From: Calliopum simillimum | Lineage: Eukaryota > Arthropoda > Insecta > Diptera > Lauxaniidae | Assembly (NCBI GenBank): GCA_951812925.1 | Contig: OX638370.1 | Location: 26,465,964 to 26,529,963 of the forward strand | DNA: 64,000 nucleotides | Direction of reading: 5' to 3' | In this document: piece by piece, positions 3,524 to 60,175 of the stretch | Numbering within the stretch: position 1 is the first letter of the stretch | Layout: the number at the start of each line of letters is the position of its first letter | Position numbers and translations under genes: made by a program | Notes under the pieces: model-generated | Seen by the model: only the letters and a program-made list of their open reading frames with translations | What the model was told of the DNA's origin: nothing | The model's database searches: none

Positions 3524-4240
3524 TACGTAGGCTGCTATATATATTTCTGGCCTAAGCAACACTAATGTCAATAGCTAAAATCTGGCAACACCATAATAAA
3601 GTTTGACATTTTTTAGCATAAACGTACTCAGAACGTTTTGACGAACGACCATCATTTGTGTTGTTTACAGTGACTTGAAAAAATCAATTTAGCAAAAAAA
3701 TCGAATTAGCTCGTGAACATTTTCGTGCGATCATTTTTTACAACTTTCGACGTGGATTATCACAACACGAGTGCATCGATGAACTTAAATCTTTGTATGG
3801 CGATGAAGCATCATCCTATAGCACTGTAAAAAACTGGTTTAATGAATTCAATCGTGGCCGGCGCTCGCTCAAAGACATTCCATGAAGGTCGTCCAAAAAC
3901 GGCGGTTGTGCCAGAGAATATTGATGCCGTGCGTAAACTGATAATGCAAGATCGTCATGTGGCATACCGTGAGATAGAAGCATCCTTGGACATTAGTTCC
4001 ACTCCAATACATTCGATTTTGCATGAAAACTTAGTTGTAAAAAACGTTTGTCGCTTAAATCATCAATGGAAAAATTAATTTTCTTAACTCAAAGTAAACA
4101 AAACAAATAGCACTTGTACATAAAAATGTTGTGAGTACGTTTATGCTAAAAAATGTCAAACTTTATTATGGTGTTGCCAGATTTTAGCTATTGACATTAC
4201 TGCTTCCTAGGCCAGGAATATATATATAGCAGCCCACGTA
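3524..4240 (+). mobile_element. Internally deleted mariner element with about 107-bp inverted repeats
   Basis: Flanked by TA duplications (3522-3523, 4241-4242). Terminal inverted repeats of roughly 107 bp start TACGTAGGCTGCTATATATA and end at GTTTATGC near 3624/4135. Between them are the N-terminal third of a mariner transposase (next entry) and a large deletion. The unusually long inverted repeats set it apart from classical short-ended mariners. Non-autonomous. Confidence 0.85.
3700..4076 (+). pseudogene. Mariner transposase N-terminal remnant, frameshifted
   Basis: Reading on the plus strand gives the mariner helix-turn-helix region, with pieces such as FYNFRRGLSQHECIDELK, STVKNWFNEFNRGRRSLKD, then after a one-base frameshift near 3880 EGRPKTAVVPENIDAVRK and REIEASLDISSTPIHSILHE. 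These are the signature phrases of mariner DNA-binding domains. The frame ends at 4076 after about 130 codons; the catalytic D,D(34)D half (normally to about residue 345) is deleted. No functional enzyme can be made. Confidence 0.9.
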
Positions 4241-13204: not shown

Positions 13205-13877
13205 TATGTACATTAGGGAGTCTCTTATTTGGGAAAAGTCAAAATTTTATGTCGCGCTCCCCCAGAATCGAAAGACTTTGAGAAAAAAATGAGATCCCCT
13301 AAACGGCCGGTTTTTTTAAACGAATTAACCTGTGCCACGAAGACATTCAAATTTAAATGAAAATTAACATAGATTTTATATACTTCTTGTTTAAACTTGC
13401 TGGGAATCGCGTTGCCTGAAATATTTTTCGCCATCAAATGTATATCTTATTGTTTTTGGGTCGCTGAACACGATACAAGTGTCAAAATTAAATTTTGACA
13501 GCTGTCAACGGCTACAGAGCTGTCACCATTTGACAGAGTTTTGACAGCTCTGTAGCCGTTGACAGCTGTCAAAATTTAATTTTGACAAAATTTAATTTTG
13601 ACACTTGTATCGTGTTCAGCGACCCGAAAACAATAAGATACACGTTTGATGGCGAAAAATATTTCAGACAACGCGATTCCCAGCAAGTTAAAACAAGAAG
13701 TATATAAAATCTATGTTAATTTTCATTTAAATTTGAATGTCTTCGTGGCACAGGTTTATCATTTAAAAAAACCTGTCGTTTAGGGGATCTCATTTTTTTC
13801 TCAAAGTCTTTCGATTCTGGGGGAGCGCGACATAAAATTTTGACTTTTCCCAAATAAGAGACACCCTAATGTACATA
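13205..13877. mobile_element. 673-bp near-perfect palindrome with a nested central hairpin
   Basis: Arms run from ATGTACATTAGGG at the left to CCCTAATGTACATA at the right and match almost base for base. At the centre (13497-13590) CAGCTGTCAACGGCTACAGA and its complement make a second, tighter palindrome around TTTGACAG. The internal edge CATTAGGG...CCCTAATG is flanked by TA on both sides, as for Tc1/mariner-type MITEs. Confidence 0.8.
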
Positions 13878-16014: not shown

Positions 16015-16700
16015 TGAAAATTTTACTTGTACAAGGGGTGCCATACCCTCACGCCCAAATTCACTTAGTTTTTGGTCAGATCTTGTGTTAACCATTCTAA
16101 GTGGCTGAGTGAAATTTGGTTAGATTCTCTCAGTACAGCATTAAGAAACTTTTGTTTATATGGGAGTTGCCACACCCTCCTTTTTGTGTTCACCCAGTTT
16201 TTGCTCAGAGCTTGCGTTCACTGTGCTTAGGGTTTGACTGAAATTTGAATGGATTATCTCAAAAGACGATTTTAGTAGAAAAATTTGGAACTTTTGCTTA
16301 TATGGGTGGTACCACGCCTTTTGTTCGAATTCACCTAGATTTTGCTCTGAGCTTGCACCTTCTATTCCTAGTATTTATGTTTATTTTTGTTGTGTTATAG
16401 TTAATAATGCTCATTTAATGACCTTTTAAATGATTTTTTGTATGAGCGGAAGATGTGTCCGTTGACCGATTTCGCTCATTTTCAATCTGACAAGCTAACT
16501 TTAATGACGGAAGCAGTGTATCAATTCCCCACAAACAGTCTTGATCCCAAAAAACATTAAAATGATTTCAACAGACGAACAGACAGACAGACGGACATGG
16601 CTATATCGATTCAGGAGGTGACGCTGATCAAGAATATATATACTTTTATATATTTGTCACGCCTCCTTCTCTGCATTGCAAACGGAAGGACATCCATACC
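16015..16700. repeat. Dispersed fly repeat with GACGGACATGGCTATATCGA
   Basis: Three internal modules share 'cacccagtttttgctcagagcttgc' text, followed by ACAGACGGACATGGCTATAT and a terminal stretch around GTCACGCCTCCTTCTCTGCA. An opposite-orientation relative lies at 34590-35210. Similar phrases are widespread in fly genomes; I do not assign a superfamily. Confidence 0.55.
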
Positions 16701-17783
16701 CTAACTATCTCCACTACTATAGTAGGAAAAAAATTTGAAATGTGTGATGTAGTTTGAGAAATTCAGTTTGCTACCGCACATTAGTTTCCTATTGCTTTGT
16801 TATTGTTTTTGGTAATCGATTAGCCAGCTCGTTGGGCAATTTGTCGGTAATTTTCATGGACGCTATCTTTATTTTTTTTGTGATGTTTTTGGTATTTTAA
16901 TATTCCACTCTTCAAATGATTTTAATGGGCATCGATTTAGTGGACGTCTTTTAAGAGCTGTCCGTAAATTTTATGACGCTCCGAAGTGGGATGGGGCTTG
17001 GTGTCTGTGTTTTTAGCATCACGAGTCTTATGGCCTCATAGTGGGGGGAACAACTTTATAAAAAATTTCAATTCCTAGAAGTTATTCGAACTATCCGAAT
17101 CCGGGTGAATAAAAACATGAACTTTATGGTACATCTGGGGCGATTTTATAGCATATTTCAGACTGAAAGAACTAATCAAAGTCTAATCTTTCGTTGGGAA
17201 ACCGTCGTCATTTTCCAAAATCACCCATAAAATGCGCCATGTGCACTTGAAACACGTCGCGATTAACATAATCATAATTTACTGGATTTCGGCCAAGATA
17301 TTAAGTGGGCAAATGCAACAAATTTAAAAACTCAACAAAATGTGAGATACCATCTGCACACTCTGTTTGAAGATGACAAAACATCTGCACACATCCTGGC
17401 AGATTACGTGTCACTCTATCGTTAAATAAAATCTTTTTGGGTTCAGGTGCTTCTATCTCCTAGTATCTAGCTGAGCTTAGGCTAAAATGCATTCTAAGGA
17501 CGAAAAAGGTTTAGCATCATAGGACTCTAATTGAGAATGAAGTGCCTGGACTATATGAAATGGAAAGATAAAACTTTAGTGCATATCTTGCTTTGGCTTG
17601 TAATCGAGTGGATGTAGGTATCTATGTATTTAATTACTTATCATAAAATAATTTATTACTTAGTATAGGTACACATATGATATATTTGCATATAAATAGC
17701 AGCTGCATCGTGTGCCACCATGACAGTAACAACTTGACTGTCCTCAAATTAGAGGTTACGATTTCTTTACAGAATCACTCATA
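16701..17783. other. Intergenic, no gene seen
   Basis: No supported frame, repeat or RNA gene recognised. Confidence 0.35.
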
Positions 17784-18006
17784 CACAGTAAAAATTTTAG
17801 TTTAATTTTAAAACCAAAAAGTATTTATATAGAACAATGCCAAAAAAAGGATTAAATTTAAACTTTTTTTGGAATAAATTTTATACTTTTCTGGAACAAA
17901 TTTCAAACTTTTTTTGAAAAAGATTAGAATTTAATAACAAAAAAGTTTAAAATAAATACTAAAGGAAATCAAAACTAAGGAAAGGAAACTATCATTTTTT
18001 AGTGTG
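17784..18006. mobile_element. TA-flanked MITE, CACA(G/C)TAAAAA family, copy 1 (223 bp)
   Basis: Starts CACAGTAAAAATTTTAGTTT and ends ...TTTTTTAGTGTG, with TA duplications at 17782-17783 and 18007-18008. Interior is a run of 'aaaaagttt'/'aaactttttt' phrases. The inverse-orientation copy at 42793-43016 is closely similar; a partial copy lies at 61077-61262. Confidence 0.85.
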
Positions 18007-18369
18007 TACCTAAAATATACAATATACCTAAAGAAGGCATAGGCCTGTGTATATAGCGCATTTATGGAATGTTTTAATATCATTATTGAACATGATTGCC
18101 AACTTTATAATAATATATATAAAAAGATCCATGCTAACAGATTTTACATGTGAAGTGTGAAACCTAACAACTACTGTATGGGTACAGTTTATACAAATCA
18201 TCACTGTATACTGATTAAATAGAAGGCTGTGAGAATTTCATACTAAAAACTTAATTGCTGGAAAGTAGCAATTTATGTCCTTCAAAATGCCTACAGTGAA
18301 AAACCTTTAGAGTGCAATAAAAATGCAACGAAATCCCAAGGAATAGCGAAATAAATCCATTTATGATCA

Positions 18370-18640
18370 GTGGATTAAGTAATGCCAAAAAAGGTTTTTT
18401 CAGTTTTTACAAAAACCAACACACACAGCTTAGTTAGCGCTACTAAGCCAAGTAGTGACAAAAGTAGGATCAGATCATAATAGCAAATTTTACTAAACTC
18501 AAATGATGAACGTAGCAGAAGGACATGACACGAAATGTCTGCGAACTTCTAGGAATTGATGTATTGATCATCACTGCTACATAGCGCAGGTAAGCGCGCT
18601 AGTGATACAAATTAAATGCGACCCGCAGACGGATTAAGGA
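18370..18640 (+). promoter_or_regulatory. Candidate upstream regulatory region of the mir-309 cluster
   Basis: CAGGTAA at 18587-18593 is a TAGteam/Zelda-type site, about 106 bases before the predicted start. GGATTAAG, a K50 (Bicoid-type) homeodomain site, occurs at 18372-18379 and again at 18631-18637. In Drosophila this cluster is an early zygotic Zelda target; here the sites are seen but their use is inferred. Confidence 0.55.
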
Positions 18641-18658
18641 GCGCCGAATTTGCGTGCG

Positions 18659-18696
18659 TATAAAAGCATGCGCGGGAAACGCTTGCCATATCAGTT
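18659..18696 (+). promoter_or_regulatory. TATA box and initiator of the mir-309 cluster
   Basis: TATAAAAG at 18659-18666 and the initiator TCAGTT at 18691-18696, with A at 18693 as the likely first base. The spacing (34) is close to the fly norm of about 30. It lies 200 bases before the first microRNA arm and on the same strand. Confidence 0.7.
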
Positions 18697-18892
18697 ACAA
18701 ACAAGCTATAGATGCTGTCGGTGTGAATATTTAATTGCTGTGAGTGTAAAGTGTGATTTAGAAGTTTCTCGATTGTGATATTACTACCAAAATGTTGTTT
18801 ATTAATTAAAGTGGGGAATATTCTGCTACAAATCACTGTGATATCTTTTTGTTTCATTTGTAAAAGTTGTGATATTTTACGCTGCGTTGGAA

Positions 18893-19020
18893 AAACTTTA
18901 TTATACGACAAACTTTGTTCAGCATTGATGTTGATTTGCATAAAATTCATGTGATATATCACTTTGAATTTTATAAATTTTTTTAAAGTTTCATCACTGG
19001 GTGAAGTTTGTCTTATAATG
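18893..19020 (+). ncRNA. mir-309: mir-309 precursor
   Basis: Mature-like arm at 18994-19015 begins TCACTGGGTGAAGTTTGTCT, close to Drosophila miR-309 (first base and two others differ). The 5' arm at about 18899-18924 (ATTATACGACAAACTT...) pairs with it over some 22 bases. The loop is about 70 nt, far longer than usual, and contains its own hairpin around GTGATATATCAC at 18951-18962. Seed CACTGGG. Confidence 0.9.
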
Positions 19021-19092
19021 GCTTGTATACTTAATCGAATGTGTTTTCAACGACAACCAAATTTTGTATTCTATCAGTGACAACATTTCCCC

Positions 19093-19176
19093 ATGCTGGG
19101 ATGCAAATTGCTCAGTTTTGTTCTAAATACAAACTCAATGCTCTATTCAACACTGGGCAAAGTGTGTCTCAAGATT
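19093..19176 (+). ncRNA. mir-3: mir-3 precursor
   Basis: 3' arm at 19150-19171 carries CACTGGGCAAAGTGTGTCTC, identical to Drosophila miR-3 apart from the first base (A here, T there). The 5' arm has CTGGGATGCA and CAGTT as in the fly precursor. Shares the CACTGGG seed with mir-309, its paralogue. Confidence 0.93.
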
Positions 19177-19228
19177 TGGTGAAAATAACAACAACTGTTG
19201 AAAATGTTCAAGTGTTTCACAAATTTCG

Positions 19229-19337
19229 AAATTTTAAAATTAAATAGCGATTGTCGGCTTAGTCGTTTGTAAAATCTAACAATTTTCTTTTGTACCAAAG
19301 TGACTAGACCGAACACTCGTGCTATAATTTTAGAATA
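19229..19337 (+). ncRNA. mir-286: mir-286 precursor
   Basis: Mature arm at 19301-19323 beginning TGACTAGACCGAACACTCGT is identical to insect miR-286. The 5' arm has GCGATTGTCGGCTTAGTC, and outer stem bases ATTTTAAAAT/ATAATTTTAGAAT pair as in the fly precursor. Confidence 0.95.
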
Positions 19338-19390
19338 TACGACAACATTGAAGTGATATAATTTTGTTTTTGTTTTTAAAAAGAAAAATA

Positions 19391-19472
19391 TGCAGCAATT
19401 AGCTTCTTTGGTAGTCTAGCCTTAAGTGATATATTTGGTCATAAAGCTAGACAACCATTGAAGTTCGTTGTA
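19391..19472 (+). ncRNA. mir-4: mir-4 precursor
   Basis: Mature arm at 19441-19461 beginning ATAAAGCTAGACAACCATTG is identical to Drosophila miR-4. The 5' arm TTAGCTTCTTTGGTAGTCTA pairs with it across a short loop. Confidence 0.95.
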
Positions 19473-19574
19473 CAAAAGCTACTTTGTGTTAAATTGTTTA
19501 TGTTTTCTATAAAAAAAATCTTTTAAATGAATCCCTACATATTATTTGTATACGTGCACACCATAATATGTAAT

Positions 19575-19648
19575 ACATTTAAAGGAACGATCGTTGTGAT
19601 ATGTTTTATATGCCAACACATATCACAGTGATTTTCCTTTATAATGCA
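19575..19648 (+). ncRNA. mir-5: mir-5 precursor
   Basis: 5' arm at 19581-19603 beginning AAAGGAACGATCGTTGTGAT matches Drosophila miR-5. The opposite arm at 19621-19643 begins TATCACAGTGATTTTCCTTT and has the ATCACAG (K-box family) seed. Short loop TTTTATATGCCAACA. The hairpin is a paralogue of the two mir-6 hairpins downstream. Confidence 0.95.
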
Positions 19649-19754
19649 TTGCTTTGCATAACAACAGTTGCTTCATAGTGCTCTTTCCAGATGTGTACGT
19701 GTATTTGTAGTGCTAAAATTTCATTGTTTTTTTGTGTGAGAAGCCATTTAAGCA

Positions 19755-19826
19755 GCGGGAATAGTTGTTGTGATGTGTGTTCTTTTATCATTAATTATAT
19801 CACAGTGGCTGTTCTTTTTGTTTATT
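19755..19826 (+). ncRNA. mir-6-1: mir-6 precursor, first copy
   Basis: Mature arm at 19798-19819 beginning TATCACAGTGGCTGTTCTTT is identical to Drosophila miR-6. The 5' arm GGGAATAGTTGTTGTGATGT pairs with it. Numbering as copy 1 is by position only. Confidence 0.95.
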
Positions 19827-19898
19827 TGTGCCAAGCTACAAAATATAATTTTTGTTAGTAAAGTTGTGTTTAAACTACATAAATCAGACTGTGTTTTA

Positions 19899-19973
19899 TT
19901 GAAGGGAACTTTCGTTGTGATGTTTTTTTATTGAATTCATAATGATATCACAGTGGCTGTTCTTTTTAGTTGT
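19899..19973 (+). ncRNA. mir-6-2: mir-6 precursor, second copy
   Basis: Mature arm at 19946-19967 is identical to the first copy (TATCACAGTGGCTGTTCTTT...). The 5' arm GAAGGGAACTTTCGTTGTGA is closer to that of mir-5 than of the first copy. A stray TTGTGATAG 25 bases downstream (19991-19999) could be the start of a lost third copy. Confidence 0.95.
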
Positions 19974-20039
19974 ACAGTTTAATCAACAAGTTGTGATAGA
20001 CATTTTTTTTTTTTGAATTTTATTCAACATTTTAAAAAT

Positions 20040-23000
20040 TTTATGGCCTTCTTAAATTTTTTTTAACTTTATCAGTATTTTTTGACTGCAACATTTTTCA
20101 AATACTTCTTACGACACTTGCAACATTTTTTTAACTTCTACAGTATTTATTTGACTCTTGCAACATTTTTCAGATTCGATAGCTCCTTAGGATATTTGAC
20201 ACATTTTTGGTATATTGCGACAGTTCCTTAAGCCTTGCAACACATTTTGATATTTGCAACATTTTTCAACCTTACACAATTTTTCGGCAACGACAAATTC
20301 CTATGACATTTGCTATATTTTTGGAATTTTATAATTTGGAGATTCTTAACTTTCTTCGGCTTTGCAACATTTTCCGGATTCGACAACTTAGGACATTTGC
20401 CACATTTTCGGAACTATGCGACATTTTCTTAACTTTTACAAAATTATTCGACTTCAGCAACATTTTGCTAGCTTGCTATATTTTCAAATGCTTCTTACGA
20501 CACTTGCAACCTTTTCTTAACTTCTACAGCATTTATTTAACTCTTGCGACATTTGTCGACTTTTGCAACATTTTTCAACTTTACAAAGTTTTTTGGCTTC
20601 GACAATCACATTTCGAATTTTGTTATTTGGAGTTTTGATTCGACAACTTATTGCGCAATTGCGACATTTTTGGATCCATGCAACATTTTCTTAACTTCTA
20701 TAATATTTCTTGTCTTTTGCAACATTTTTCGACTTCGCAACATTTTTCGGAATCGACAACTTCTTAGCACATTTGCCACATTTTTGGAACTATGCGACAT
20801 TTCCTTAAATTTTGCAACATTTTTCGACTTTTCAACATTTTCCGGATTCGTCAACTTGGTACGCAATTGCAACATTTCTGGAATTATGCAACATTTTCTT
20901 TACTCTTACAAAATTTGTCGATTTTAGCAACATTTTGCTAGCTTGCAATATTTTCTGGATTCGACAACTCCTTATGACTTTATCGGCATTTTTTGTCTGC
21001 AACATTTTTCAAATGCTTCTTACGACACTTGCAACTTTTCTTAGCTTCTACAGCATTTTTTATCTCTTGCAACATTTGTCGACTTTTGCACCATTTTTCG
21101 GATTCGACAACTTCTCAGGTGATTTGACATATTTTAGGAATATTGCGATATTTTCTTAAATCTTGCAACATTTTTTGATACTTGCATCATTTTACGACTT
21201 TTTTCAACATTTTTCAACTTTTCGAAATTTTTCGGCTTCGACAATGTGATTTTCTTAACTTTCTTCGGCTTTGCAACATTTTCCAGATTCGACAACTTAT
21301 TGCGCAATTGCGTCATTTTTGGAATTATGCAACATTTTATTAACTGCTATAGTATTTCTTGTCTTTTGCAACATTTTTCGAAATCGACAAATTCTTAGGA
21401 CATTTGCGACATTTTTGATTATCCGGATTCGACAACTTATTGCGCAATTGCGACATTTTTGGAATTATCCGACATTGTCTTTACTTTGACAACATTTTTC
21501 GGCTTTAGCAATATTTTGTTAGCTTGCAATATTTTCTGGATTCGACAACTCCTTATGACTTGACCAGCATTTTTTGACTGCACCGTTTTCAAATGCTTCT
21601 TATGACACTTGCAACATTTTCTAAACTTCTACAGCATTTTCTGTCTCTTGCAACATTTGTTGACTTTTGCAACGTTTTTCGGATTTGACAACTTCTAAGG
21701 ACATTTGACACATTTTGGGAAAGTTGCGACATTTGCTTAAATCTTGCAACATTTTTTGATGCTTGCAACATTTTTCGACTTTTGCAACATTTGTCAACTT
21801 TAAAAAATTTTTCAGCTTCGACAACTTCCTATGACATTTGCGATATTTTTGGAATTTAGTAATTTTGAGTTTCTTAACTTTCTTCGGCTTTGCAATATTT
21901 TCCGGATTCAACAACTTATTGCGCAGTTGCAAAATTTTTGGAATTATGCAACATTTTCTTAATTTCTGTAATATTTCTTGTCTTTTGCAACATTTTTCGA
22001 CTTTTGCTGCATTTTTCAGAATCGACAACTTCTTAGGACACTTGCGACATTTTTGGAACAATGCGAATTTTTCTTAACTTTTGCAACATTTTTGGATTTT
22101 TCAACATTTTCCGGATTCGACAACTTATTACGCAATTGGGAATTTTTTGGAATTATGCGACATTAACTTCACTTCTTTAACATTATTTGTCATTTGCAAC
22201 ATTTTTCGGATTCAACAAGTTCTTACGACATCTTTGGAACAATGCGACATTTTCTTAATTTTTACGACATTTTTCGACATTTCTCTAGCTTGCAATATTT
22301 TCTGGATTCGATGACATTTGAAACATTTATGGAATTTCGCGACATTTTCTTTCGACTTACCAAAATTTTTTATGTTCGACAACTTCTTATGACGTTTGCG
22401 ACATTTTTGAAATTATGCGACATTTTCGTTTTTTTTGTAACATTTTTCGACTTTGCAAGATTTTACGGAGTCGACAATTTCTATGGAATATGCGACTTTG
22501 TAACATATTCTTGACATTTGCACAATTTTACGACTTTTGCAACATTTCCGTTTTCTTTCAATATTTTTCCACTCTGCAACATTTTTCTAATTTGACATAC
22601 AATAATTTATTCGACTTTTACAACATTTTCGATTTTTTATATATTGTATTTTTCGACTTTGCAATATATTTAGATTTCTGGAACATTTTTCGACCTTGTA
22701 TCATTTTTCGGATTCCACAACTGCGAATGACATTTGCGACATTTTTGGAACTATGCAACATTTTTTTAACTTTTGCAACATTTTTCGACCTTGTATCATT
22801 TTTCGGATTCCACAACTGCCAATGACATTTGCGACATATTTGTGGTTATGCGACATGTTAACGACTTTTGCGTAATTTATTGATTTGCAACGTATTCTTA
22901 ACATATTTGATTATTTCAATATTTTTCCACTCTGCAACATTTTTCGAATTTGACAAAATTTATTCGACTTGTGCAACATTTTCGACCTTTTCGATATTTT

Positions 23001-23545
23001 TTGACTTTGCAAATTTTTTTGATTATTTATGACAATTGCGAATTTTTTGGAACTATGCGACATTTTCTTAAATTTTTAAACTTTTTCGACTTTTGCAACA
23101 TTTTAGAACATTTGAAGTTTTTTCTGAATTTTGCAACTTTATATGACATTTGCTACAATTAAACTTTTGCCAAATTTTTTAACATTGTTCGACTTTTGCA
23201 ACATTTTCGACCTTTCGACATTTGTCGACTTTTGCAATGTTTTCAACCTTTAAATCTTTTTCGACGTTTTTCACATATATCTCTTTGGATTTACAACTTT
23301 TTTCAATATTTTTGATATTTTTCAAATGCTGCATGCAACATATTTTTTTCTTTGGCAACAATTTTGTAATTTATGCAACATTTTCCAAAATTCTATTCGA
23401 TCCTTGTTAGACTTTATGACTTATTCAATGTTATTTAACTTTTGCAAATCTTTTTCCTCTTTTTCAATGTTTCGCGAATATTTCAACATTTTTTCGATTT
23501 TTGCAACATTTTTTCAACATCAACAAAAACCGCACCACAACTTTG
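20040..23545. repeat. 3.5-kb degenerate tandem array, GCAACATTTTTCGACTT units
   Basis: Built from 15-20-bp pieces such as GCAACATTTTTCGAC, GGATTCGACAACTTCTTA, GGACATTTGCGACATTTTTG and GAACTATGCGACATTTTC, combined in irregular higher-order groups. Units diverge 10-25%. Both strands stay open for 60-145 codons in several frames only because of the repeat; none is a gene. It starts right after the mir-6 copies. Confidence 0.9.
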
Positions 23546-24904: not shown

Positions 24905-25630
24905 TCCGTAAGGGCCCAAATGCATCGAAAAATATTGAAATACATTGCAGAAATCGGTAAAGGTCCAAATATATCGAAAAACATCCAAATTATCGGTAAA
25001 AGTTCAAAAGTACCCATTGCATAATATTGAAAAACATCGGTAAAGATCTAAAAATGTTGAAAAACATCCGAAAATCGGTAAACGGTAAAAGTCCAAAAGT
25101 ACTGTAAAAGTCCAAATATATCGAAAAACATCCAAAATATCGGTAAAAGTCCAAAAGTAATGAAAAATATTGAAATGCATCGCAGAAATCGGTGAAAGTC
25201 CAAATATATCGAAAAACATCGAAAAAATTGGTAAAAGTCCATAAAGTATCGAAAAACATCCAAAATACCTATAAAAGTCCAAAAGTACCCATGGCAAAAT
25301 ATTGAAAAACATCGGTAAAGGTCTAAAAATGTCGAAAAACATCCGAAAATCGATAAACGGTAAAAGTCCAAAAGTATTGTAAAAGTCCAAATACACCGAA
25401 AAACATCCAAAATATCGGTAAAAGTCCAAAAGAAATGAAAAATATTGAAATGCATCGCCGAAATCGGTGAAAGTCCAAATATATCGAAAAACATCCAAAA
25501 TATCGGTAAAAGTCCAAAAGCATTGAAAAATATTGAAATATGTACATCGAAAAAATTGGTAAAAGTCCAAAAGTATCGAAAAACATCCAAAATATCGGTA
25601 AAAGTCCAAAAATATCAAAAAATATAGCAA
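24905..25630. repeat. Tandem array of CGGTAAAAGTCCAAAAGTATCGAAAAACATCCAAAATAT-type units
   Basis: Units of roughly 36-42 bases, with a higher-order repeat of about 310 bases (compare 25010-25160 with 25285-25430). On the minus strand it stays open as LDFYRYFGCFSI repeats for up to 208 codons; this is a by-product of the array. Confidence 0.9.
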
Positions 25631-31777: not shown

Positions 31778-32318
31778 ACGGGTGATCCAATAAGAGCTTC
31801 CTACTTTGTTTTCTAAATAAAATACATAAAAATCAATGTATTGTTGCAAATCTTTATCTGCAATGATAGTTCGGTTCCTACAACTTAAAGTTTAAAAATT
31901 ATTTCATTCAAATGTTGTCCACGACTAGCTCTTAAATGGTTTATTCTGTGGGTCCAATTTTCGACCACTTTTTCGAGCATATTGGCCGGTATTCTTTGAA
32001 TAACATGAGTTATTTGGTTTTTCATAATGTCAATAGTTTCGGGTTTGTCGACATAAATAAGTGATTGAACATATCTCCGAAGAAAGTAATCCAATGGCAT
32101 CAAATCACATGATTTCGGTGGCCAATTAACCGAAGCATTTCTTGAGATGATGTTTTCATCGAACGTTTCCCTTAATAAAGCGATTTTTTCTCCAGCTGTA
32201 TGACATGTTGTGCCATCCTGTTGAAACCAGAGGTCGGCTACACTGAGCACAAACGTCATATAGACAAGCCTGTCAAAACAACCCAATTGAAAAAGGAACC
32301 TCGTATTGGACCACCCTT
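31778..32318 (-). mobile_element. 541-bp mariner deletion derivative with TA duplications
   Basis: Left end ACGGGTGATCCAATAAGAG, right end inverse CTCGTATTGGACCACCCTT; TA at 31776-31777 and 32319-32320. It retains the C-terminal third of the transposase on the minus strand. Confidence 0.85.
31885..32235 (-). pseudogene. Mariner-type transposase C-terminal part
   Basis: Reads LWFQQDGTTCHTAGEKIALL, NWPPKSCDLMPLDYFLRRYV and MLEKVVENWTHRINHLRASR, ending at 31885. The QQDG-(A/T)-CHT block holds the second catalytic Asp and CDLMPLDYFL the third. The N-terminal two thirds are deleted, so no active enzyme. The frame stays open to 32493 but beyond 32318 that is flanking DNA. Confidence 0.9.
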
Positions 32319-32758
32319 TATAACCTATGATTCTACAATCTTTTACGCCGGATAGTAATAACTTGCAAACGATAAAAATTCCAACGTTGCTTATGTAATT
32401 GAAGTCAAGGTAAAGTGTAGTGAGTAGTAGCATTTGTTTGTAACCTTCGCATTCGATACAAAATATATTTACTATACATCCTAATGCCACCAATTGTTAA
32501 CTGCAAACATAATGCCCTCCAATTGGCAACATATTGATTTCCCATCAATCTCTTGGCAATTATTATTGATATGCGTGCAAAACTACTGACAGACAAACCG
32601 ACAGACTGGCAAGTGCGTGTGTAACAATTTTCCTCGGAATACATTATTCCTTTCGCATAGCAAGTGAGTCCTTATTATGCCAATTATACTGTGTTATTGT
32701 TAGATATTGTTGAGGAAAAACTTTTTAGTCTGCTTGAGACTTTCAAACGGCTAACGAT

Positions 32759-34138
32759 ATGCGTTTGCTAAAAAAGTTAACAAAGGAGGAGCGCGAAGGC
32801 ATACGAGAACAGCGCAAGGAAACCCAATTAATTGTCGCCTGGGCAAGAGAAAGAAGTAAATGGGGGGAGGGAGGGATTTAATCACACCTCTATCTACATT
32901 TAACTTTAATTAAAATTTATGTTTATTTCACGTTTTTGCAGGCTTTGAATATGTCGTCAATCCACCGGAAATACCACGTGTATGTTTCGGTTCTGGCATG
33001 GAACGTGTTACTTTGCCACTTCGAGGTCCTGGGCTTAGTTCCTTTATGCGTTCAATTGTCGGTGAGGTGCGCTCATTTCCTGGACCATTGGATTATGAAA
33101 CAACAAAGGGAATGGAAAAAAAGGTAAGGTATCTTAGAACAGCTGCGTTCAGCTTTGTCTTGACCAAAAGAAATTAAAACGGAAAGATTTGCAAGTCCAA
33201 CACACATTTCGAAACTTTGATGCGTGGGGGAAGATACGAATCCGACTTTAACTCACTCATATTATCGAAAAAGCACCTATCCAAACACATTAACAAACTT
33301 CCATGGTCTGAAGAGAGGTTTGTAAATTGAGCTCTTGCGAGAATATACCTCCCTCTACTTTAACTTCGATTCTTGAACCATCAGTGAAAACCGGAATAGC
33401 GTTTTCTCTAGGAGGTGTAGGTACCTTATTTCAAAAACCTTTTTTTCTTCTCTTCCAGTACACCACTATATTGGGTTTCAGTGCATTTGCCAGCAAAATA
33501 CCACGGCTCCCTGCCACACATATATCAACATTTCCACCAATTGGTGCTTATGATTTGGATAAATGGACAATACCAAGACAATGCGCGAAACCATTTAATT
33601 CGGGTACAGAACGTGTAAAACAAGTGAAGTTTCTAACGCCAGGGTGACTACATTAATCATTTTATTTTCTGGCCCACTTATATACGTAGCAACTAAGTAA
33701 AAATTTCTTAATTTTTTCCCCAGTCCACCGACTTATCCACATCATTTGTCTGGTAAAAAGCCCAGAAAATTAAGCAGCGCTTTTGGCAGCCGCCGCATTA
33801 TCTGGCCGGAAGTTGCAGTCTTTTGTTCACCATATAACACATCGAAATGCTATAAATGCAATAAGACCCCATATGGTGATTATTGGCATAACTTCAATTC
33901 CAATCTCGATATGTGCCGGCCATGCATGAAGACGGAACAATATCGTCTGAAACAATGTTCGATTGATACATTCCTGAGAATACGTTTGAAGCGTGAATTG
34001 GGACAATTTCATCCGATGCGCTACTGTGGTTTCTTTCATAATCACAATGGCACCACGGCGGCAATGCAACTTATACCGACGAAGGAATTGCGCTTTAAGA
34101 GGAAACAAGAAAATTATTTGAAGTTATATATGAATTGA
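32759..34138 (+). CDS. Four-exon gene, SHIPPO/sperm-tail-like protein with paired CxxC motifs (292 aa)
   Basis: Exons 32759-32855, 32942-33123, 33459-33643 and 33724-34138 join in frame (phases 1, 0, 2) with consensus sites: AA|GTAAAT, TTTTTGCAG, AAG|GTAAGG, CTCTTCCAG, GG|GTGACT, TTCCCCAG. The start ATG at 32759 opens MRLLKKLTKEEREGIREQ. The middle contains PPEIPRVCFGSGMERV, RGPGLSSF, FPGPLDYE and, across the last junction, FLTPGPPTYPH: PGP-x-x-Y motifs resemble the SHIPPO (STPG) repeats of axonemal microtubule proteins. The C-terminal exon has CYKC and CRPC 30 residues apart, a possible zinc-binding pair, then KRELGQFHPMRYC. A role in sperm tail or cilium is inferred from the motifs only. 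I do not recognise the exact orthologue. The gene looks intact. Confidence 0.88.
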
Positions 34139-36331: not shown

Positions 36332-36790
36332 AATGGCATAACCATAGGCTGACATCATTAAAATTATAGTATATTGAGGCAATTTTACGCTTCATTTAAA
36401 TGTTGCAGTTTTACCATTTGTCCTTTATGCTGCTGCCGCCGCCGCACACAATTCCCACAATAAATGCAACAAAAATAATTGTACCTCCTCTAAATCGGAA
36501 AATCCAGCAAGTCGCTCTAGCTGTCAGTTGCGCCTAAAACCACACTACAAGAGCTAACCAACGTTCTCGCACACAAAACTTGGTGCAAAACTTTGCAACG
36601 CGCAAAGCAGCAATCACTTCACCATTTGCATTTGAAGTTTTGTTGTTGCACTGTGGTTCGTTGGCATACATTTTTGATTTAAAAACAAAATTGTGGTAAA
36701 GATTGGTAGGTACTGATATTGGTAAGGGTAGGTGACAATGTGTTTTATATAATTTAATTGAATTTTACTTTGTTCCATTTCATTTCACTT

Positions 36791-37495
36791 CATTTCATTT
36801 CATTTCATTTCATTTCATTTCATTTCATTTCATTTCATTTCATTTCATTTCATTTCATTTCATTTCATTTCATTTCATTTCATTTCATTTCATTTCATTT
36901 CATTTCATTTCATTTCATTTCATTTCATTTCATTTCATTTCATTTCATTTCATTTCATTTCATTTCATTTCATTTCATTTCATTTCATTTCATTTCATTT
37001 CATTTCATTTCATTTCATTTCATTTCATTTCATTTCATTTCATTTCATTTCATTTCATTTCATTTCATTTCATTTCATTTCATTTCATTTCATTTCATTT
37101 CATTTCATTTCATTTCATTTCATTTCATTTCATTTCATTTCATTTCATTTCATTTCATTTCATTTCATTTCATTTCATTTCATTTCATTTCATTTCATTT
37201 CATTTCATTTCATTTCATTTCATTTCATTTCATTTCATTTCATTTCATTTCATTTCATTTTATTTCATTTCATTTCATTTCATTTCATTTCATTTCATTT
37301 CATTTCATTTCATTTCATTTCATTTCATTTCATTTCATTTCATTTCATTTCATTTCATTTCATTTCATTTCATTTCATTTCATTTCATTTCATTTCATTT
37401 CATTTCATTTCATTTCATTTCATTTCATTTCATTTCATTTCATTTCATTTCATTTCATTTCATTTCATTTCATTTCATTTCATTTCATTTCATTT
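36791..37495 (+). repeat. (CATTT)n microsatellite, about 141 units
   Basis: An almost perfect pentanucleotide tract of 705 bases; the only change I see is C to T at 37261. Because 5 is not a multiple of 3 the plus strand reads HFISF without stops for 249 codons, which is not a gene. The leading 20 bases (36771-36790) are imperfect units. Confidence 0.98.
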
Positions 37496-38616
37496 CGTCA
37501 AATTTAACTTCGTACCCACAGTTCAACGCGGCCGCTACCGCCACGGTAGCTTATGAAGTTGTTAAAATTTCGCTGCCAAATTTTCTGGCTCAACTTGTGG
37601 TAATGTGCTTGTGTCGATGCGGCCTCAGCCTCAGCTCATCACTTTGACCCCGACAAAGAAAATATGCTTTCAGGTTATGGGAAGTGAGTGCACACGAAAC
37701 ACACGGAACATTAGACAAATACAAACTTTTTGACTGCAACAATCTATTTAATTGTGAAATTTCTGTACATCCGTTTCCATTTGACTTTTTCAACTCACAC
37801 GAGTGGTCGTCGAGTGGGATGCACTTAACCATATAACATTTTACTCTTTAATGTTGCAATAAATCTACTTTGTATGTTGGAAGCTTAAAGGTGTCTTAAT
37901 AAATGTATATCATAAAATAATAAAGTATAATTTTAAACTTTTTGAAATGGTATGAAATATTCGCAGAAAGTTTGCAAAGCCTTCTAAATTTATATTCTAC
38001 TTTTTTGGCTTAAGCTAAGATTTATCACATTTCTAAAAATTAAAGTTATGCACATATGTATGCCCCCTTAATCAAAATTCCATACAAAAACATTATTTTG
38101 TCACTCGCTATAGTTCTAACCGCAACATAGTAGCAAATGCATAAGAGAACATCTCTAAAAGCCACCGTCAATCAACCAAACATAAAGTTACATTCCAGAA
38201 TTTCGGAAGTGTAGGAGGAGGGGTAGGGGAACAATGGGACGTGTAGTAAGTCACAATGCAGCACATAGTCCTCGCAAATATACGACACACGAATAATCCG
38301 TTTATTTCCGTCGAGAAGAATGCAAATGCAAATTCAACGTGAACACACCGGCAGCTTAAAATGCAACTCTGTAACTATTAGAGTGGTGATGCCATCACCC
38401 ATACAGCCCCTCCGAAACACAGAAAAACACACGCACATTTACATCTTCAAGTAACTCGTTTTGTTGATCCTTTGGCTTAGCTGATGGTTTTGTCCGCAAA
38501 TTCACCTTTTTTGCGCTTGGTTATGCAAAATACACGAGTTATTCCAGAATGCAATGTTGTTTTGAATAGAAGATGAACTGCATAGAATGAGATCTAAAGA
38601 TGAGGGACATTGGCTT
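37496..38616. other. Intergenic, no gene seen
   Basis: 37520-37580 is locally GC-rich (GCGGCCGCTACCGCCACGG) but without a supported frame. The remainder is featureless. Confidence 0.35.
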
Positions 38617-51596: not shown

Positions 51597-52470
51597 ATGA
51601 TAAAGATGTCTAGTTATCAAGAAAAAAGGCGCAAAGTCGTTTTGTCCACTTACCTGAAAAAACAGAATTAAAATATTCAGCTAAAGCTAAAAAAAAACAG
51701 GTGCATCAAAAATCACTGTCCAAAGAGTTATTTTGAATTATAGAAGGGGTCAACTTATTGTGCGAAGAAAGGGTAATCGGTAAGCATATAGACCCACAGT
51801 TGGTGGAAAAATTGAAGCACCCTTTTAAGCTGAATTCCAACACTTTAGTACGAGATATGGCTGCTAGGGCAGATACCTCAAAATTTTCTATACAAAGACT
51901 AAAGAAAAAAAGTAAGCTGAAGACCTACAGAGTTCAAAAAGTACTAGACTGTTCCAATGAAGAGCAGTTGGAAGCTCGAAAGTTATAATAAGGTTACCTT
52001 ACTAAATTTGACTGGTGCATAATGGACATATGTTAAGGCAGATTTCAAACAACTACTAAGTCACGAATTTTATACCTGTTTGGAGAAGAGGCAGTTACAG
52101 AACAAATTTAATGAGAAGAAATTCACAAAATTTCCCAAGCAGTATATGGCTTGGCACGCCATATGCACCTGTGGTCTGAGAAATATTTTTATTTTTAGCA
52201 GAGGGCACAGTTAACTCGAGAATTTATATTGACGAATGCCTCGAAAAACATCTTTTGCCATTTATTCGTGGGCACGGGGGTACTGTAATGTTCTGGCCTG
52301 ATTTAGCAACCTCTCACTACTCTAGAGCCACCATAGAACGGTACAATAGCAATAATGTAAATGTTGTTCCCAAAAATGCGAATCCACCTAATGGCCCAAA
52401 GCTTCGACCTATTGAGAGATATTGGGCTCTAATGTTGTCAAACGTACCCCAGCTTACTCTATTCAGTTAA
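51597..52470 (+). pseudogene. Tc1/mariner-family transposase remnant
   Basis: Begins near MIKMSSYQEKRRKVVLSTYL at 51597. 51758-51988 reads ERVIGKHIDPQLVEKLKHPF and NTLVRDMAARADTSKFSIQR, a helix-turn-helix region. Later pieces are FWPDLATSHYSRATIE (the conserved second catalytic Asp context), NVNVVPKNANPPNGPKLRPI and ERYWALM. Several stops and frameshifts; the 3' end is interrupted by a foldback at 52467. Confidence 0.8.
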
Positions 52471-55711: not shown

Positions 55712-57966
55712 TTAGGCTACAATAGTCCTATACTCAGTCAACTTTTGTTTTTTAAGTAGCTCTTCTTTGACTCTTAGTTTAAGCTTTATCTGATAATGAA
55801 AAATTTCAAAAATCAAGACCACGGATGCAATCAAATATGTCCATATCAGATGTGTAAAAGGCATTACAAAATGTGAAACAGTTAATGGCTTTAACTGTTC
55901 CTGATCGTCAATAAGAACTTTAATTAAATTTAGTTCAGAAGCCTGATGAATACTCAAATCTTCCCATTTCTTCGAAAGTCCAGACTCTTGTACAATTATT
56001 GAAAATAACGAAAGGCTACTCGCGAATGGTGAATCCCATTGTATGGGAAATTTTTGAAAATAATTGGCCGTACAGAGTGCATCTGAAGCAATGCGAAATT
56101 TATGTTTCCAAAGATTATGCTGTTTTTGGCTCAACATACGCCATTGCTCGCGAGTGACTACGTAAGCATATGAAGTATTCAAGGCGTCACGATGTGCCAG
56201 TAAATTTTCCAAATCCGTAACATACAAACGACTTTGTAAGCTATGTGGCAAGCGTTCGGCATCAAAGTACATCTTTGGCTCATATTCGTGCAGCAATATT
56301 TGTAGACCTGATGCCAGAAAATCTGCTTCCGTTTCAATTTGTACGCCCAATATAGTTGTGCTTAATAGCGAGGTCAACGAGGTGGTCAAACTGCTTTGTA
56401 TGGCGAAAATCGTTAACAATACGATCACATGAAAGAGTTTTAGCGGCATACTCCAATTTTTAAAATAACTCGAAGGTAGTGATTGCTGATATGAGACTCC
56501 ATGACTGTACACAAGTGAAAGTCCATAGTTATCGTAGAAACTGCTATGTTTACAATATAATAGCAGGTGGAATAGTAAAAGTCCGAAGGTTAAAAGTGTT
56601 CCCAGTAACCAAGTTATTGGCTCGAAAGTACGATTTAAATACTCCGAGCGATCAATTTCTTGTACTACCGGAACAATGACACAAGCATTTGTCTGAGACA
56701 GTGGATAGCTGCCCTCGGTTTGATTGGCAAATTCCAATAGCTCCGAAAATGGATGTATACCAATGTCAATGGTTTTATTAGCTGTAAGGCGTAATGCACG
56801 CTTATGGTATGAATAATAGCTTGCATTAGTCTGTGGTAAGAGACGGATTGTTCCATTAATTCTGTACACGTACTCATCATATATGTGTCCGGCAGTTCCA
56901 CTAATAGCAAAATCTTCTTCACCTATATGATGACGATGTTTCTCAAATGGTGTCTAAAATTAAGAGAAGAGTTGGAGTTAGTTATTATAAAAACAGTGCT
57001 TAGATACGAAGATTTTTGCATCAATTTTAACGTTAGTTATACTAGGCATGTAAGCATAAATCCTAACAAAAATTAAATTTGTCTTTAAAAAATCTAAACC
57101 GTACTTATGCCAGTTTCTTCATTGGCACAAATACATGTGGTTTCCAATAATTTACTAAAATCAATTCAGTTTATTTTGGGCCAAAGCGTTACATACGATC
57201 TCGACTTTATTTAATACGATATACTCACCATAAATGCTGTTGGTGGATCCATAAAAATTGGTGTATTAAATCTATATCCATAGACATTGGTAATTTTTTC
57301 GGGCAGAAACACCGTTGTCCTATATCCTTTCGCTGTCAAATTACGCACCGTGATGCGTGGAAAAGGCGTATAGTTGAATATTTGATATTGCATAAAAAGT
57401 ATTTTAGCCTTACAACCCGATTCTAGTGTAAATTGCATATCAAGAAATGTAAACACAACATTTACAATATTAACACTCCAACACCAAGCGAAAAATCGTT
57501 TGATATCTGCCATATTGGGTATAGCATAATCTGGACGTTTGAAAATGAAAATCATTGGCATAAAATGTAGACCCTCTAGGGTTGTATTGACTGTTGCCAT
57601 CATAGGATCATCAACGCTGGTTATATCAATGAATGCCAAATTATTTAAACCAATATGATTGCGTAACTTCATGTTATTGCCTGGACCGAGTATGAAAATC
57701 GATTGACCAAACTCATTCATGAGCGTTTCCTCAAGCGATAGTGGTATTAAGCAGGGTGGTGTCTTTGCAATGCCCAAATCACGATATATTAAAAAGTTGG
57801 TAAACTGATGTGTGTGATGTAGATATTTTGTAAAATTATAAACAAACTGGTAAGCAATTGAGCCCACAATTATTGGCTTTTGTATATTCCTTTGGCTCTT
57901 TGCTGGGTTAATTGCCAGCAGCAGCAGCAGCGTTAGTGTCAAAAGGAAAATCAGTGAGTAATGCAT
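55712..57966 (-). CDS. Divergent ionotropic receptor (IR), two exons, 659 aa
   Basis: Exon 1 is 57229-57966 (ATG at 57966, donor ATG|GTGAGT), exon 2 55712-56953 (acceptor TTAATTTTAG), joined in phase 0. Residues 1-24 are a signal peptide (MHYSLIFLLTLTLLLLLA). The ligand-binding lobe S1 ends in VYGYRFNTPIFMDPPTAF and continues across the junction. First membrane segment about 359-380 (WLLGTLLTFGLLLFHLLLY), pore and second segment about 403-440 (NWSMPLKLFHVIVLLTIF, SSLTTSLTSLLS), lobe S2, last segment about 614-639 (HLIWTYLIASVVLIFEIF). This is the layout of insect IRs, ligand-gated cation channels in chemosensory neurons. The glutamate-binding residues of true glutamate receptors are not evident. 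Probably related to the Drosophila IR56 group (inference). Polyadenylation signal at 55625-55630. Confidence 0.9.
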
Positions 57967-60175
57967 TGTGACTGACGCTTTGATGGTTAAGTAACAACTA
58001 ATGGTGAAAAATATATGCAGTATTATTTATAATCATTTTCACTTCTTACATATTGTCGTAGTAGTCTGGAAAAAGGTGTCATATCCATAATATGTGATGG
58101 ACAATTTGTAAACAATCTTATGACATTTAGAATGTTTACATTTAGATCAAACTGGTGGAAAGTGATTAATACAGTGGTGGAATTATTAGTTTTTGTATGG
58201 TATGTAACAATCACTGAGAAAATTTGTGAATATACATATAATTTTTAGAACCAAAAGTTTAAGTTTAAATTTCTAATTTCATAAAAATCTGTGTAGGGCT
58301 TAGCCTTGAAGGCAAATTTTTCGAATAAGGACGGTGTCAAGTCCATTTGAATAAAAAAAGTGTCTCTATAGCCGCTCCAAGAAAAACCAAGCGAATATGT
58401 TGAGATTAAGGTAGTTAAAAGAGGGTCTGAACTAAGTATATGTTGGCTTAGCCTATTTATATAAGATATATTAAAAGAACTTTTATTTTCGATGTATCAA
58501 TGTAAAGAAAAAGGTTCAGCTTTCGCTACGTATTACAATTTTGAATTCAACATTAAAGAATAAAAGTTTTAATTTGATTAGAGAACTAAAAATTTTCTCA
58601 AATCGAGAACTGAGTTCTATTTTTATTGAGAATGTTATGATTCTGTAAGGTTTTTCGTATCGCATTCTAATATTCGACATTAGAAAAAATGGTTCATTCT
58701 TGAATCACTCTCTAATCCAGCTATGGCATATAAATTCAAATCCAATTTTCATCGGGAACAGCGAACCATTAGACTATCTGGATGGGATAAATCTAGCACC
58801 AAGTATTGACAGGGTTGTCATTACGGCAAATGAAGGTATTGGAAAAAATCGAAAAGTATAGAACTAGTCGAAAATTTATGAAATTACGAAAATCAACAAA
58901 TTTTTATAATGAAATTTTGAGTTGAAATATTTTGAAAATGTCGAATATTGTAAGGAAAGTTGAAAATTTCTGAAAACATGAAAAAAGTAGAATTTTTGAA
59001 AGAAGCGAAATTGCTGAGATTTCAAAATTATTCAAATAGTCGGAAATTGTCGAAATTGTTGAGGTGTCCCCGGCAGAAGATAGTATCATCTGGCAGTCTC
59101 TCTTATTTCGTAGAATTTAGAGTTGTAGAAAAAGATTATCTCTTCTACAACTCAGGAGGTATGCAATGGTTAAGCATGGTGCAACCTTTCTATCTTATTG
59201 TTGTGTACGGCGGTTTTAAGGGGTGTCGAAGTTTTGACTGAAGGCACAATATTGTTGGTAAGACGATTGAACTATTGACTTAACGTTGGTTAACAGGAGG
59301 TTAACGAAGTATTAAAGGTAAAACGGAACTTGAAAGGTTGTTGGCCAGACATTGTCCCATGTCTGGACCCAAGCAGCCTGCTGCCTCCCAGCGGTAACCC
59401 CTAGAAATGGTGATTGGCAGTGTCGCTGTCAGCTATCAGCCAAAGCCGGAATGCGGAAGAGCGTGACTTTTTGCGCATATGGCAAAGCGATCAAGAGCAA
59501 TCCAAGATAGTATTTCGAAGCTTTTCCTGAGAAATCCGCACTTGGTAACGTGTTCCCACGACCCATAGTAAGTCGAGTTGTAGATGGTAAATTGGTTATA
59601 GCTACCATAGATAGGACTACTTCTCCTAGAGCTTTCTTGAAGAGAGGGATGCACCAAGAAATGTGTTTCCACAATTATGATAAATCGACATGGGTGATAA
59701 GTCCCAGGCTGATCAGATCTATACTAACGGAAGCGTTCTGCTACGAAATCTGACCAGAGATTATTCTGGTTAGATTTGTAAGTTGCCCTCATTTAAAAGT
59801 GGGCGTGGAACTCACTTGATTATGCCCATTATTACGGTCAGTTAATGGCATTTATGTTCGGTAGCTATCTACCAAATTTCAAAGAAATAGCACATATACT
59901 TTACGAGTTATAACATAATAAAGTTTGGAAAACGCTGCTCTAATGATTGACTGAACTGAATGTTTACTAAGATACGACATATTTTTTTTTGAGAAAACCT
60001 TAAATAAAATTGTCTGTTACGGCTGAATTAAGTTTAATAAACTTATTATTTAACGTTCTGTCAATTAATTAACATAAAATACAAAGCAATCAATCCTTTA
60101 ATTAAACAATTTTTAATAATAGTGCTAAGCACACAACACGTCTTCACGCATTCTAATAATAATTTGTGCAATATA
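57967..60175. other. Intergenic between the two receptor copies, no gene supported
   Basis: 58850-59060 has GTCGAAATTG/GAAAATTTCTG-type repeats. 59340-59760 is more GC-rich with short overlapping frames on both strands, perhaps a decayed retroelement. 59800-59890 carries GTGGGCGTGG repeat text. Confidence 0.35.

What the first reader, a model, noticed from the sequence alone, without database searches (positions are those of the whole stretch)
18693..19971. Complete mir-309~mir-6 microRNA cluster in Drosophila order
Seven hairpins on one strand (mir-309, mir-3, mir-286, mir-4, mir-5, mir-6, mir-6) with mature arms identical or nearly identical to Drosophila. This cluster drives maternal mRNA clearance at the onset of zygotic transcription, so it is the functional heart of the window and is invisible to protein-based annotation.
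Basis: partly seen in the sequence, partly recalled or inferred. Interest (0 to 1): 0.9.

Follow-up and report, generated by a model that had tools for sequence, protein, structure and literature searches.

The report
Fly embryo microRNA cluster, mir-309~6
This is a fly's version of a well-known set of microRNA genes that, in fruit flies, helps clear the mother's messages from the early embryo; it is real but mostly expected, with small differences from the Drosophila set.

Summary
Seven plus-strand microRNA hairpins lie at 18900-19971 in the order mir-309, mir-3, mir-286, mir-4, mir-5, mir-6, mir-6. Five pass Rfam's curated cut-offs and nothing else in the 64 kb does. The two mir-3-family hairpins score below the cut-off (53.1 and 42.6 against 54 bits) but are supported by mature arm, fold and position. 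"Complete" is too strong: Drosophila has eight loci with three mir-6 (PMC3923130); here there are two, with no third at E<=0.05. A CG15125-gene tree puts the fly outside nine sampled Drosophila, unresolved against tephritids and calyptrates. Drosophila-like order there bears on the published view that the arrangement is drosophilid-only, but tsetse was already reported with most of it (PMC9710702). Details found here: a TATA/initiator pair and one Zelda-type site upstream; a CNNC motif at +16-18 behind five of seven hairpins (P about 1e-4); a roughly 110-nt pre-mir-309 with a second hairpin in its loop and no CNNC. Expression, processing and maternal mRNA clearance are inferred by homology, not shown. 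An ordinary member of a known kind.

The parts
18587..18593 (+). CAGGTAA, TAGteam/Zelda-type site, 106 bp before the putative start site
   Evidence: the only match to the eight TAGteam-like strings tried within 16500-20600; CAGGTA occurs 5 times on each strand of the window, so one within 200 bp has roughly a 3% chance; motif meaning recalled
18659..18665 (+). TATAAAA, putative TATA box
   Evidence: the only + strand TATAAA with TCAGTY placed 26-37 bp downstream in the window (one more on the - strand)
18691..18696 (+). TCAGTT, putative initiator with start site A at 18693
18900..19019 (+). mir-309 precursor (mature-like 3p 18994-19015)
   Evidence: RF00716 42.6 bits, below cut-off 54; z -6.0; 2 differences in 21 nt from B. 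dorsalis miR-309
18940..18974 (+). second hairpin nested in the mir-309 loop
   Evidence: -10.9 kcal/mol for 18936-18978, z -4.1; 270 of 12792 windows of 43 nt fold as well; no second copy in the window at up to 11 of 35 mismatches
19093..19175 (+). mir-3 precursor (mature-like 3p 19150-19171)
   Evidence: RF00716 53.1 bits against cut-off 54; z -2.5
19234..19335 (+). mir-286 precursor (mature-like 3p 19301-19323)
   Evidence: RF00789 91.2 bits; mature identical to B. dorsalis over 23 nt
19393..19473 (+). mir-4 precursor (mature-like 3p 19441-19461)
   Evidence: RF03258 84.1 bits; z -5.7
19578..19646 (+). mir-5 precursor (mature-like 5p 19581-19603; 3p arm 19621-19642)
   Evidence: RF00854 75.8 bits; z -6.7
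19750..19823 (+). mir-6 precursor, first copy (mature-like 3p 19798-19819)
   Evidence: RF00143 63.2 bits; z -6.9
19897..19971 (+). mir-6 precursor, second copy (mature-like 3p 19946-19967)
   Evidence: RF00143 61.7 bits; z -5.0; mature identical to the first copy
32914..34138 (+). gene in the same window, CG15125 homologue (exons inside the open frames 32914-33177, 33312-33647, 33701-34138; further 5' exons not sought)
   Evidence: 24 homologues, best Anastrepha ludens at 58% identity, one named CG15125 (D. busckii); used to place the fly

Best explanation
A polycistronic microRNA gene, the orthologue of Drosophila mir-309~6, in a higher (schizophoran) fly outside the sampled Drosophila species. 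One Pol II transcript starting near 18693 (TATA at 18659, Zelda-type site at 18587) is most likely made at the onset of zygotic transcription. Drosha cuts seven hairpins from it; Dicer-1 and AGO1 take up miR-309/3 (seed CACUGGG), miR-286 (GACUAGA), miR-4 (UAAAGCU), miR-5 (AAGGAAC) and two identical miR-6 (AUCACAG); these speed decay of maternal mRNAs. Shown here: the hairpins, order, mature-like arms and seeds. Inferred: start site, timing, processing, targets and function.
For: Five hairpins at Rfam's curated cut-offs and none elsewhere in the window; two mir-3-family hairpins in the expected places; fold z-scores and in-context folding; mature arms differ from B. dorsalis by 0 of 23 (miR-286), 1 of 22 (miR-4), 1 of 22 (miR-5), 2 of 22 (miR-6), 2 of 21 (miR-309); order as in Drosophila (PMC3923130); CNNC 16-18 nt after the assumed 3' end in 5 of 7, background 9% in the window and 12% locally, binomial P 1.1e-4 and 4.0e-4, 5 of 7 reached only at shifts 0 and +1 of 54 shifts; TATA-initiator pair 207 bp upstream of the first hairpin, one of two such pairs in the window counting both strands; Zelda-type site upstream. 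Zelda activation of the cluster and its need for decay of about 400 maternal mRNAs are reported for D. melanogaster (passages of PMC6303782); AGO1 loading there is in passages of PMC6066331.
Against: No expression data could be examined. Two of seven hairpins miss Rfam's cut-off. miR-3 differs by 4 of 22 from its nearest B. dorsalis relative. One mir-6 fewer than Drosophila. mir-309 has an unusually long loop and no CNNC in the next 30 nt. The single Zelda-type site has about a 3% chance of standing there by accident. In tephritids and tsetse the cluster is also ovarian or female-biased, which does not fit a purely zygotic role.
Confidence: 0.85

Rival explanations
1. Same microRNAs, but in this fly the cluster acts mainly before or around egg laying (ovary, maternal loading), not as a strictly zygotic clearance switch. 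(Not exclusive of the identity claim above.)
For: B. dorsalis cluster members were abundant in embryos and also found in ovary (PMC4593211 passages); the tsetse cluster was reported as female-biased (PMC9710702 passages); only one Zelda-type site here.
Against: In D. melanogaster and D. virilis expression is early and zygotic (PMC3923130 section 10); a Zelda-type site and a TATA/initiator pair lie upstream here.
Confidence: 0.2
2. The cluster is present but mir-309 is no longer processed normally: the nested hairpin and missing CNNC mark a decaying or altered member, with mir-3 supplying the shared seed. (Not exclusive of the identity claim above.)
For: About 110-nt pre-miRNA by assumed cuts, with a nested hairpin; no CNNC in the 30 nt behind mir-309, while five of the other six have it at +16-18; lowest Rfam score of the seven.
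Against: The stem is long and intact (z -6.0); the mature arm differs by 2 of 21 nt from B. dorsalis miR-309 and keeps the seed, which suggests selection. The nested hairpin is matched in energy by 270 of 12792 windows of 43 nt, so it may be unremarkable in this AT-rich DNA.
Confidence: 0.1
3. Chance hairpins in AT-rich DNA, not genes.
For: 29 of 34 strong-hairpin groups lie outside the cluster, and AT-rich palindromes elsewhere get low Rfam E-values.
Against: Only the cluster passes curated cut-offs; mature arms and order agree with known clusters; CNNC positions.
Confidence: 0.01

Closest known systems
Drosophila mir-309~6 cluster (PMC3923130, passages and section 10 read)
   Same: Same families, order and strand; compact, 1.07 kb here; upstream Zelda-type site.
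   Different: Two mir-6 instead of three; pre-mir-309 enlarged by a nested hairpin (comparison with Rfam's 74-position mir-3 model); miR-3 begins with A (Drosophila U, recalled) and miR-309 with U (Drosophila G, recalled), if the assumed 5' ends are right.
Glossina pallidipes mir-309~6 cluster (PMC9710702, passages read)
   Same: miR-309, -3, -286, -5 and -6 listed together in one region, outside Drosophilidae.
   Different: Spans 4.31 kb there; mir-4 is not in the list given there.
Bactrocera dorsalis mir-309-6 cluster (PMC4593211, passages read)
   Same: mir-309, -286, -4, -5 and -6 relatives in one 3.5-kb region; 0-2 differences in those mature arms.
   Different: By the printed coordinates the order along the transcript is 5c, 309, 286, 5b, 6, 309b, 4, 5; no mir-3 listed (the window's miR-3 is 4 of 22 from mir-309b); extra mir-309 and mir-5 copies.

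Membership tests
[quoted passage not shown]
   all above gathering scores
mir-309~6 cluster (flies in general) | mir-309 and mir-3 at the 5' end | tested here: met
   seed CACUGGG in both and expected positions; but both score under RF00716's cut-off
Rfam RF00716 (mir-3) | score at least 54 bits | tested here: not met
   53.1 and 42.6 bits; called homologues on mature arm, fold and position, not on Rfam's threshold
Drosophilid eight-gene form of the cluster | three mir-6 loci | tested here: not met
   two loci in this window, no third at E<=0.05; the rest of the genome could not be searched
Drosophilid eight-gene form of the cluster | order 309-3-286-4-5-6 | tested here: met
   against PMC3923130
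canonical animal microRNA genes | hairpin with the mature sequence in one arm | tested here: met
canonical animal microRNA genes | basal CNNC motif 16-18 nt after the cut (offset recalled; motif described for mammals in PMC4730277 passages) | tested here: met
   5 of 7; mir-5 has it at +20 and mir-309 has none; cut sites assumed
canonical animal microRNA genes | precise small-RNA reads | not testable with these tools
   no small-RNA data held
mir-309~6 cluster (flies in general) | Zelda-driven early zygotic transcription | tested here: inconclusive
   one CAGGTAA upstream; expression not testable
mir-309~6 cluster (flies in general) | destabilises maternal mRNAs | not testable with these tools
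   reported for D. melanogaster, inferred here

The most novel reading that the evidence does not exclude
The Drosophila arrangement with mir-4 between mir-286 and mir-5 is ancestral to schizophoran flies, so the tephritid order is the derived one; and in this lineage pre-mir-309 has gained a second hairpin in its loop and lost CNNC, giving miR-309 separate control of processing from its cluster mates.
Probability: 0.25. Interest if true: 0.4.

Novelty: new member of a known kind. Interest (0 to 1): 0.22.

Why it matters
The cluster's content and organisation were described as unique to drosophilids (PMC3923130). A near-identical arrangement in a fly outside the sampled Drosophila, together with tsetse's partly listed set, points to an older origin, with gain or loss of mir-6 copies and rearrangement in tephritids. 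It also gives a compact outgroup for testing which parts (promoter site, loop, CNNC) are conserved.

Tried and rejected
Third mir-6: no match at E<=0.05 in the whole window; the extra mir-6-model hit at 19576-19645 is mir-5 itself. Extra hairpin upstream at 18815-18885: does not fold better than shuffles (z 0.39, 127 of 200 as good). Hairpin 19515-19587: folds well (z -4.7) but overlaps the mir-5 base and has no family match of its own; left unexplained. Nested mir-309 hairpin as a repeat: no second copy with up to 11 of 35 mismatches in the window.

Placement of the fly: the six ionotropic-receptor relatives found are 33-41% identical; the three that bear names are Calliphora vicina, Lucilia cuprina and Musca autumnalis. 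The CG15125 homologue is nearest to tephritids at 58%. Trees put the window outside nine Drosophila (branch 100/100), but grouping with tephritids (p-AU 0.389) or calyptrates (0.391) is not rejected, and the best tree joins it to Drosophila at only 75/78; an earlier tree with Anopheles had it near tephritids plus Drosophila at 83/95. Drosophilids outside the sampled species are not excluded. Of 24 homologues 18 went into the first tree (P0011 and P0025-P0029 left out, being partial or from genera already represented) and 17 into the second (Anopheles also dropped as a long branch). Pfam on 11 open frames, the ionotropic-receptor frames among them, gave nothing above cut-off.

Literature: searches that required the word mir-309 with a fly name were Musca domestica: 2 papers, the tsetse paper and a B. 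dorsalis paper; Lucilia: 1 paper, on a bee; listing only. Searches were capped lists (20 of 206, 15 of 1306, 15 of 147) that need not hold every paper on the point, so absence from print in Calliphora, Sarcophaga or Stomoxys is not claimed. One search (six mature sequences as text) found one paper. That CG15125 lies beside mir-309 in Drosophila is recalled and comes from no call; none of the 10 of 174 papers listed names CG15125.

Full report
Observation. Rfam at curated thresholds finds five microRNA hairpins in 64 kb, all within 19234-19971 on the + strand: mir-286, mir-4, mir-5, mir-6, mir-6. With an E-value threshold two mir-3-family hits stand before them, at 18900-19019 and 19093-19175, with 42.6 and 53.1 bits against a cut-off of 54. 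True 5' ends would need reads.

Is it more than chance? Folding by itself would not decide it: of 34 strong-hairpin groups on the + strand of the window 5 are in the cluster, and that scan missed mir-309 and mir-286. Near-perfect AT-rich hairpins near 13.5 kb reach low E-values against unrelated families, and the minus strand of mir-5, mir-286 and mir-4 gives weaker matches below cut-off. What decides is that only the cluster passes curated cut-offs, that mature arms differ by 0 of 23 (miR-286), 1 of 22 (miR-4), 1 of 22 (miR-5), 2 of 22 (miR-6) and 2 of 21 (miR-309) positions from those printed for Bactrocera dorsalis, while miR-3 is 4 of 22 from its nearest (PMC4593211 passages), and that the order matches Drosophila (PMC3923130 section 10). 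All seven hairpins form in the predicted fold of the putative primary transcript 18693-20010, with mature-base pairing inside the precursor of 0.73 to 0.94. z-scores of single precursors run from -2.4 to -6.9.

An independent sign of processing. A CNNC motif stands 16-18 nt after the assumed 3' cut in five of seven hairpins (mir-3, mir-286, mir-4, both mir-6); mir-5 has it at +20 and mir-309 has none in the next 30 nt. The background is 9% in the window and 12% over 18000-21000, binomial P 1.1e-4 and 4.0e-4; with the wider range 15-21 it is 6 of 7, P 1.9e-4 and 1.0e-3. Five of seven is reached only at shifts 0 and +1 of 54 shifts. The offset is recalled, the cut sites are assumed, and the motif's role is described for mammals in the passages read (PMC4730277).

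Promoter. TATAAAA at 18659 and TCAGTT at 18691 form one of only two such pairs in the window, counting both strands, and put the start at 18693, 207 bp before mir-309. A CAGGTAA lies at 18587. Zelda is reported to activate the cluster in D. melanogaster (PMC6303782 passages). With one site this is suggestive only.

What differs from Drosophila. Drosophila has eight loci with three mir-6; here two, with no third at E<=0.05 in the window. Pre-mir-309 is about 110 nt by assumed cuts because a 35-nt hairpin (18940-18974) sits in the loop; 270 of 12792 windows of 43 nt fold as well, so it is unusual but not extraordinary in this AT-rich DNA. miR-309 appears to start with U and miR-3 with A (Drosophila G and U, recalled); the seed CACUGGG is the same in both. 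One study reports that in Drosophila miR-3 and miR-309 decay about 3-10 times faster than the others and that the 5' nucleotide can influence stability (PMC6066331 passages), so the changed first base is a testable difference.

Which fly. The gene at 32914-34138 is a CG15125 homologue, 52-58% identical to tephritids (58% Anastrepha), 51-52% to Musca and Haematobia, 41-49% to Drosophila and 39-44% to Glossina. Trees place the window outside nine Drosophila species with full support but leave it unresolved between tephritids, calyptrates and the stem of Drosophila. Named ionotropic-receptor relatives are from Calliphora, Lucilia and Musca, at 33-41%. It is therefore a higher fly outside the sampled Drosophila; its family is not settled, and a drosophilid outside the sampled species is not excluded.

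Meaning. PMC3923130 held content and organisation to be unique to drosophilids; PMC4593211 found a rearranged cluster in tephritids; PMC9710702 listed miR-309, -3, -286, -5 and -6 together in tsetse. The window adds mir-4 in the Drosophila place in a compact cluster. That makes the Drosophila order more likely ancestral among these flies, but with one unidentified species it is an inference. Function in maternal mRNA clearance rests on D. melanogaster work; ovarian or female-biased expression in Bactrocera and tsetse leaves room for a maternal role. Verdict: real, correctly named apart from 'complete', a new member of a known kind, of low to moderate interest.

Noticed in passing
window 19515-19587 +: A hairpin with z -4.7 whose 3' arm overlaps the base of mir-5; no Rfam family of its own. 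It may compete with the mir-5 hairpin or be a chance AT palindrome.
   Followed up: partly
window 20539-23520: About 3 kb of degenerate 18-19-bp repeats (TTGCAACATTTTTCGAC-like, with a 95-bp higher period); similar units are visible from about 20090, just after the cluster; strong T and C strand bias.
   Followed up: no
window 24928-25622: Another degenerate array (39-bp and 275-bp periods, GTAAAAGTCCAAA units).
   Followed up: no
window 36776-37496: 144 nearly perfect copies of CATTT, open in three frames.
   Followed up: no
window 55712-58026 - and 61484-62692 -: Two divergent ionotropic-receptor-like genes in tandem; the first has 33-41% identity to Calliphora, Lucilia and Musca proteins among six hits; Pfam gave no match to the three frames.
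   Followed up: partly
window 13438-13647: Near-perfect AT-rich inverted repeat (-59.5 kcal/mol in a 90-nt window), perhaps a small mobile element; draws low-E-value matches to unrelated miRNA families below their cut-offs.
   Followed up: no
window 3830-4078 +, 31885-32496 -, 51737-52470 +: Open frames that look by eye like fragments of Tc1/mariner-type transposases; Pfam gave no match to the three pieces scanned, 3830-4078, 31885-32496 and 51737-51988.
   Followed up: no
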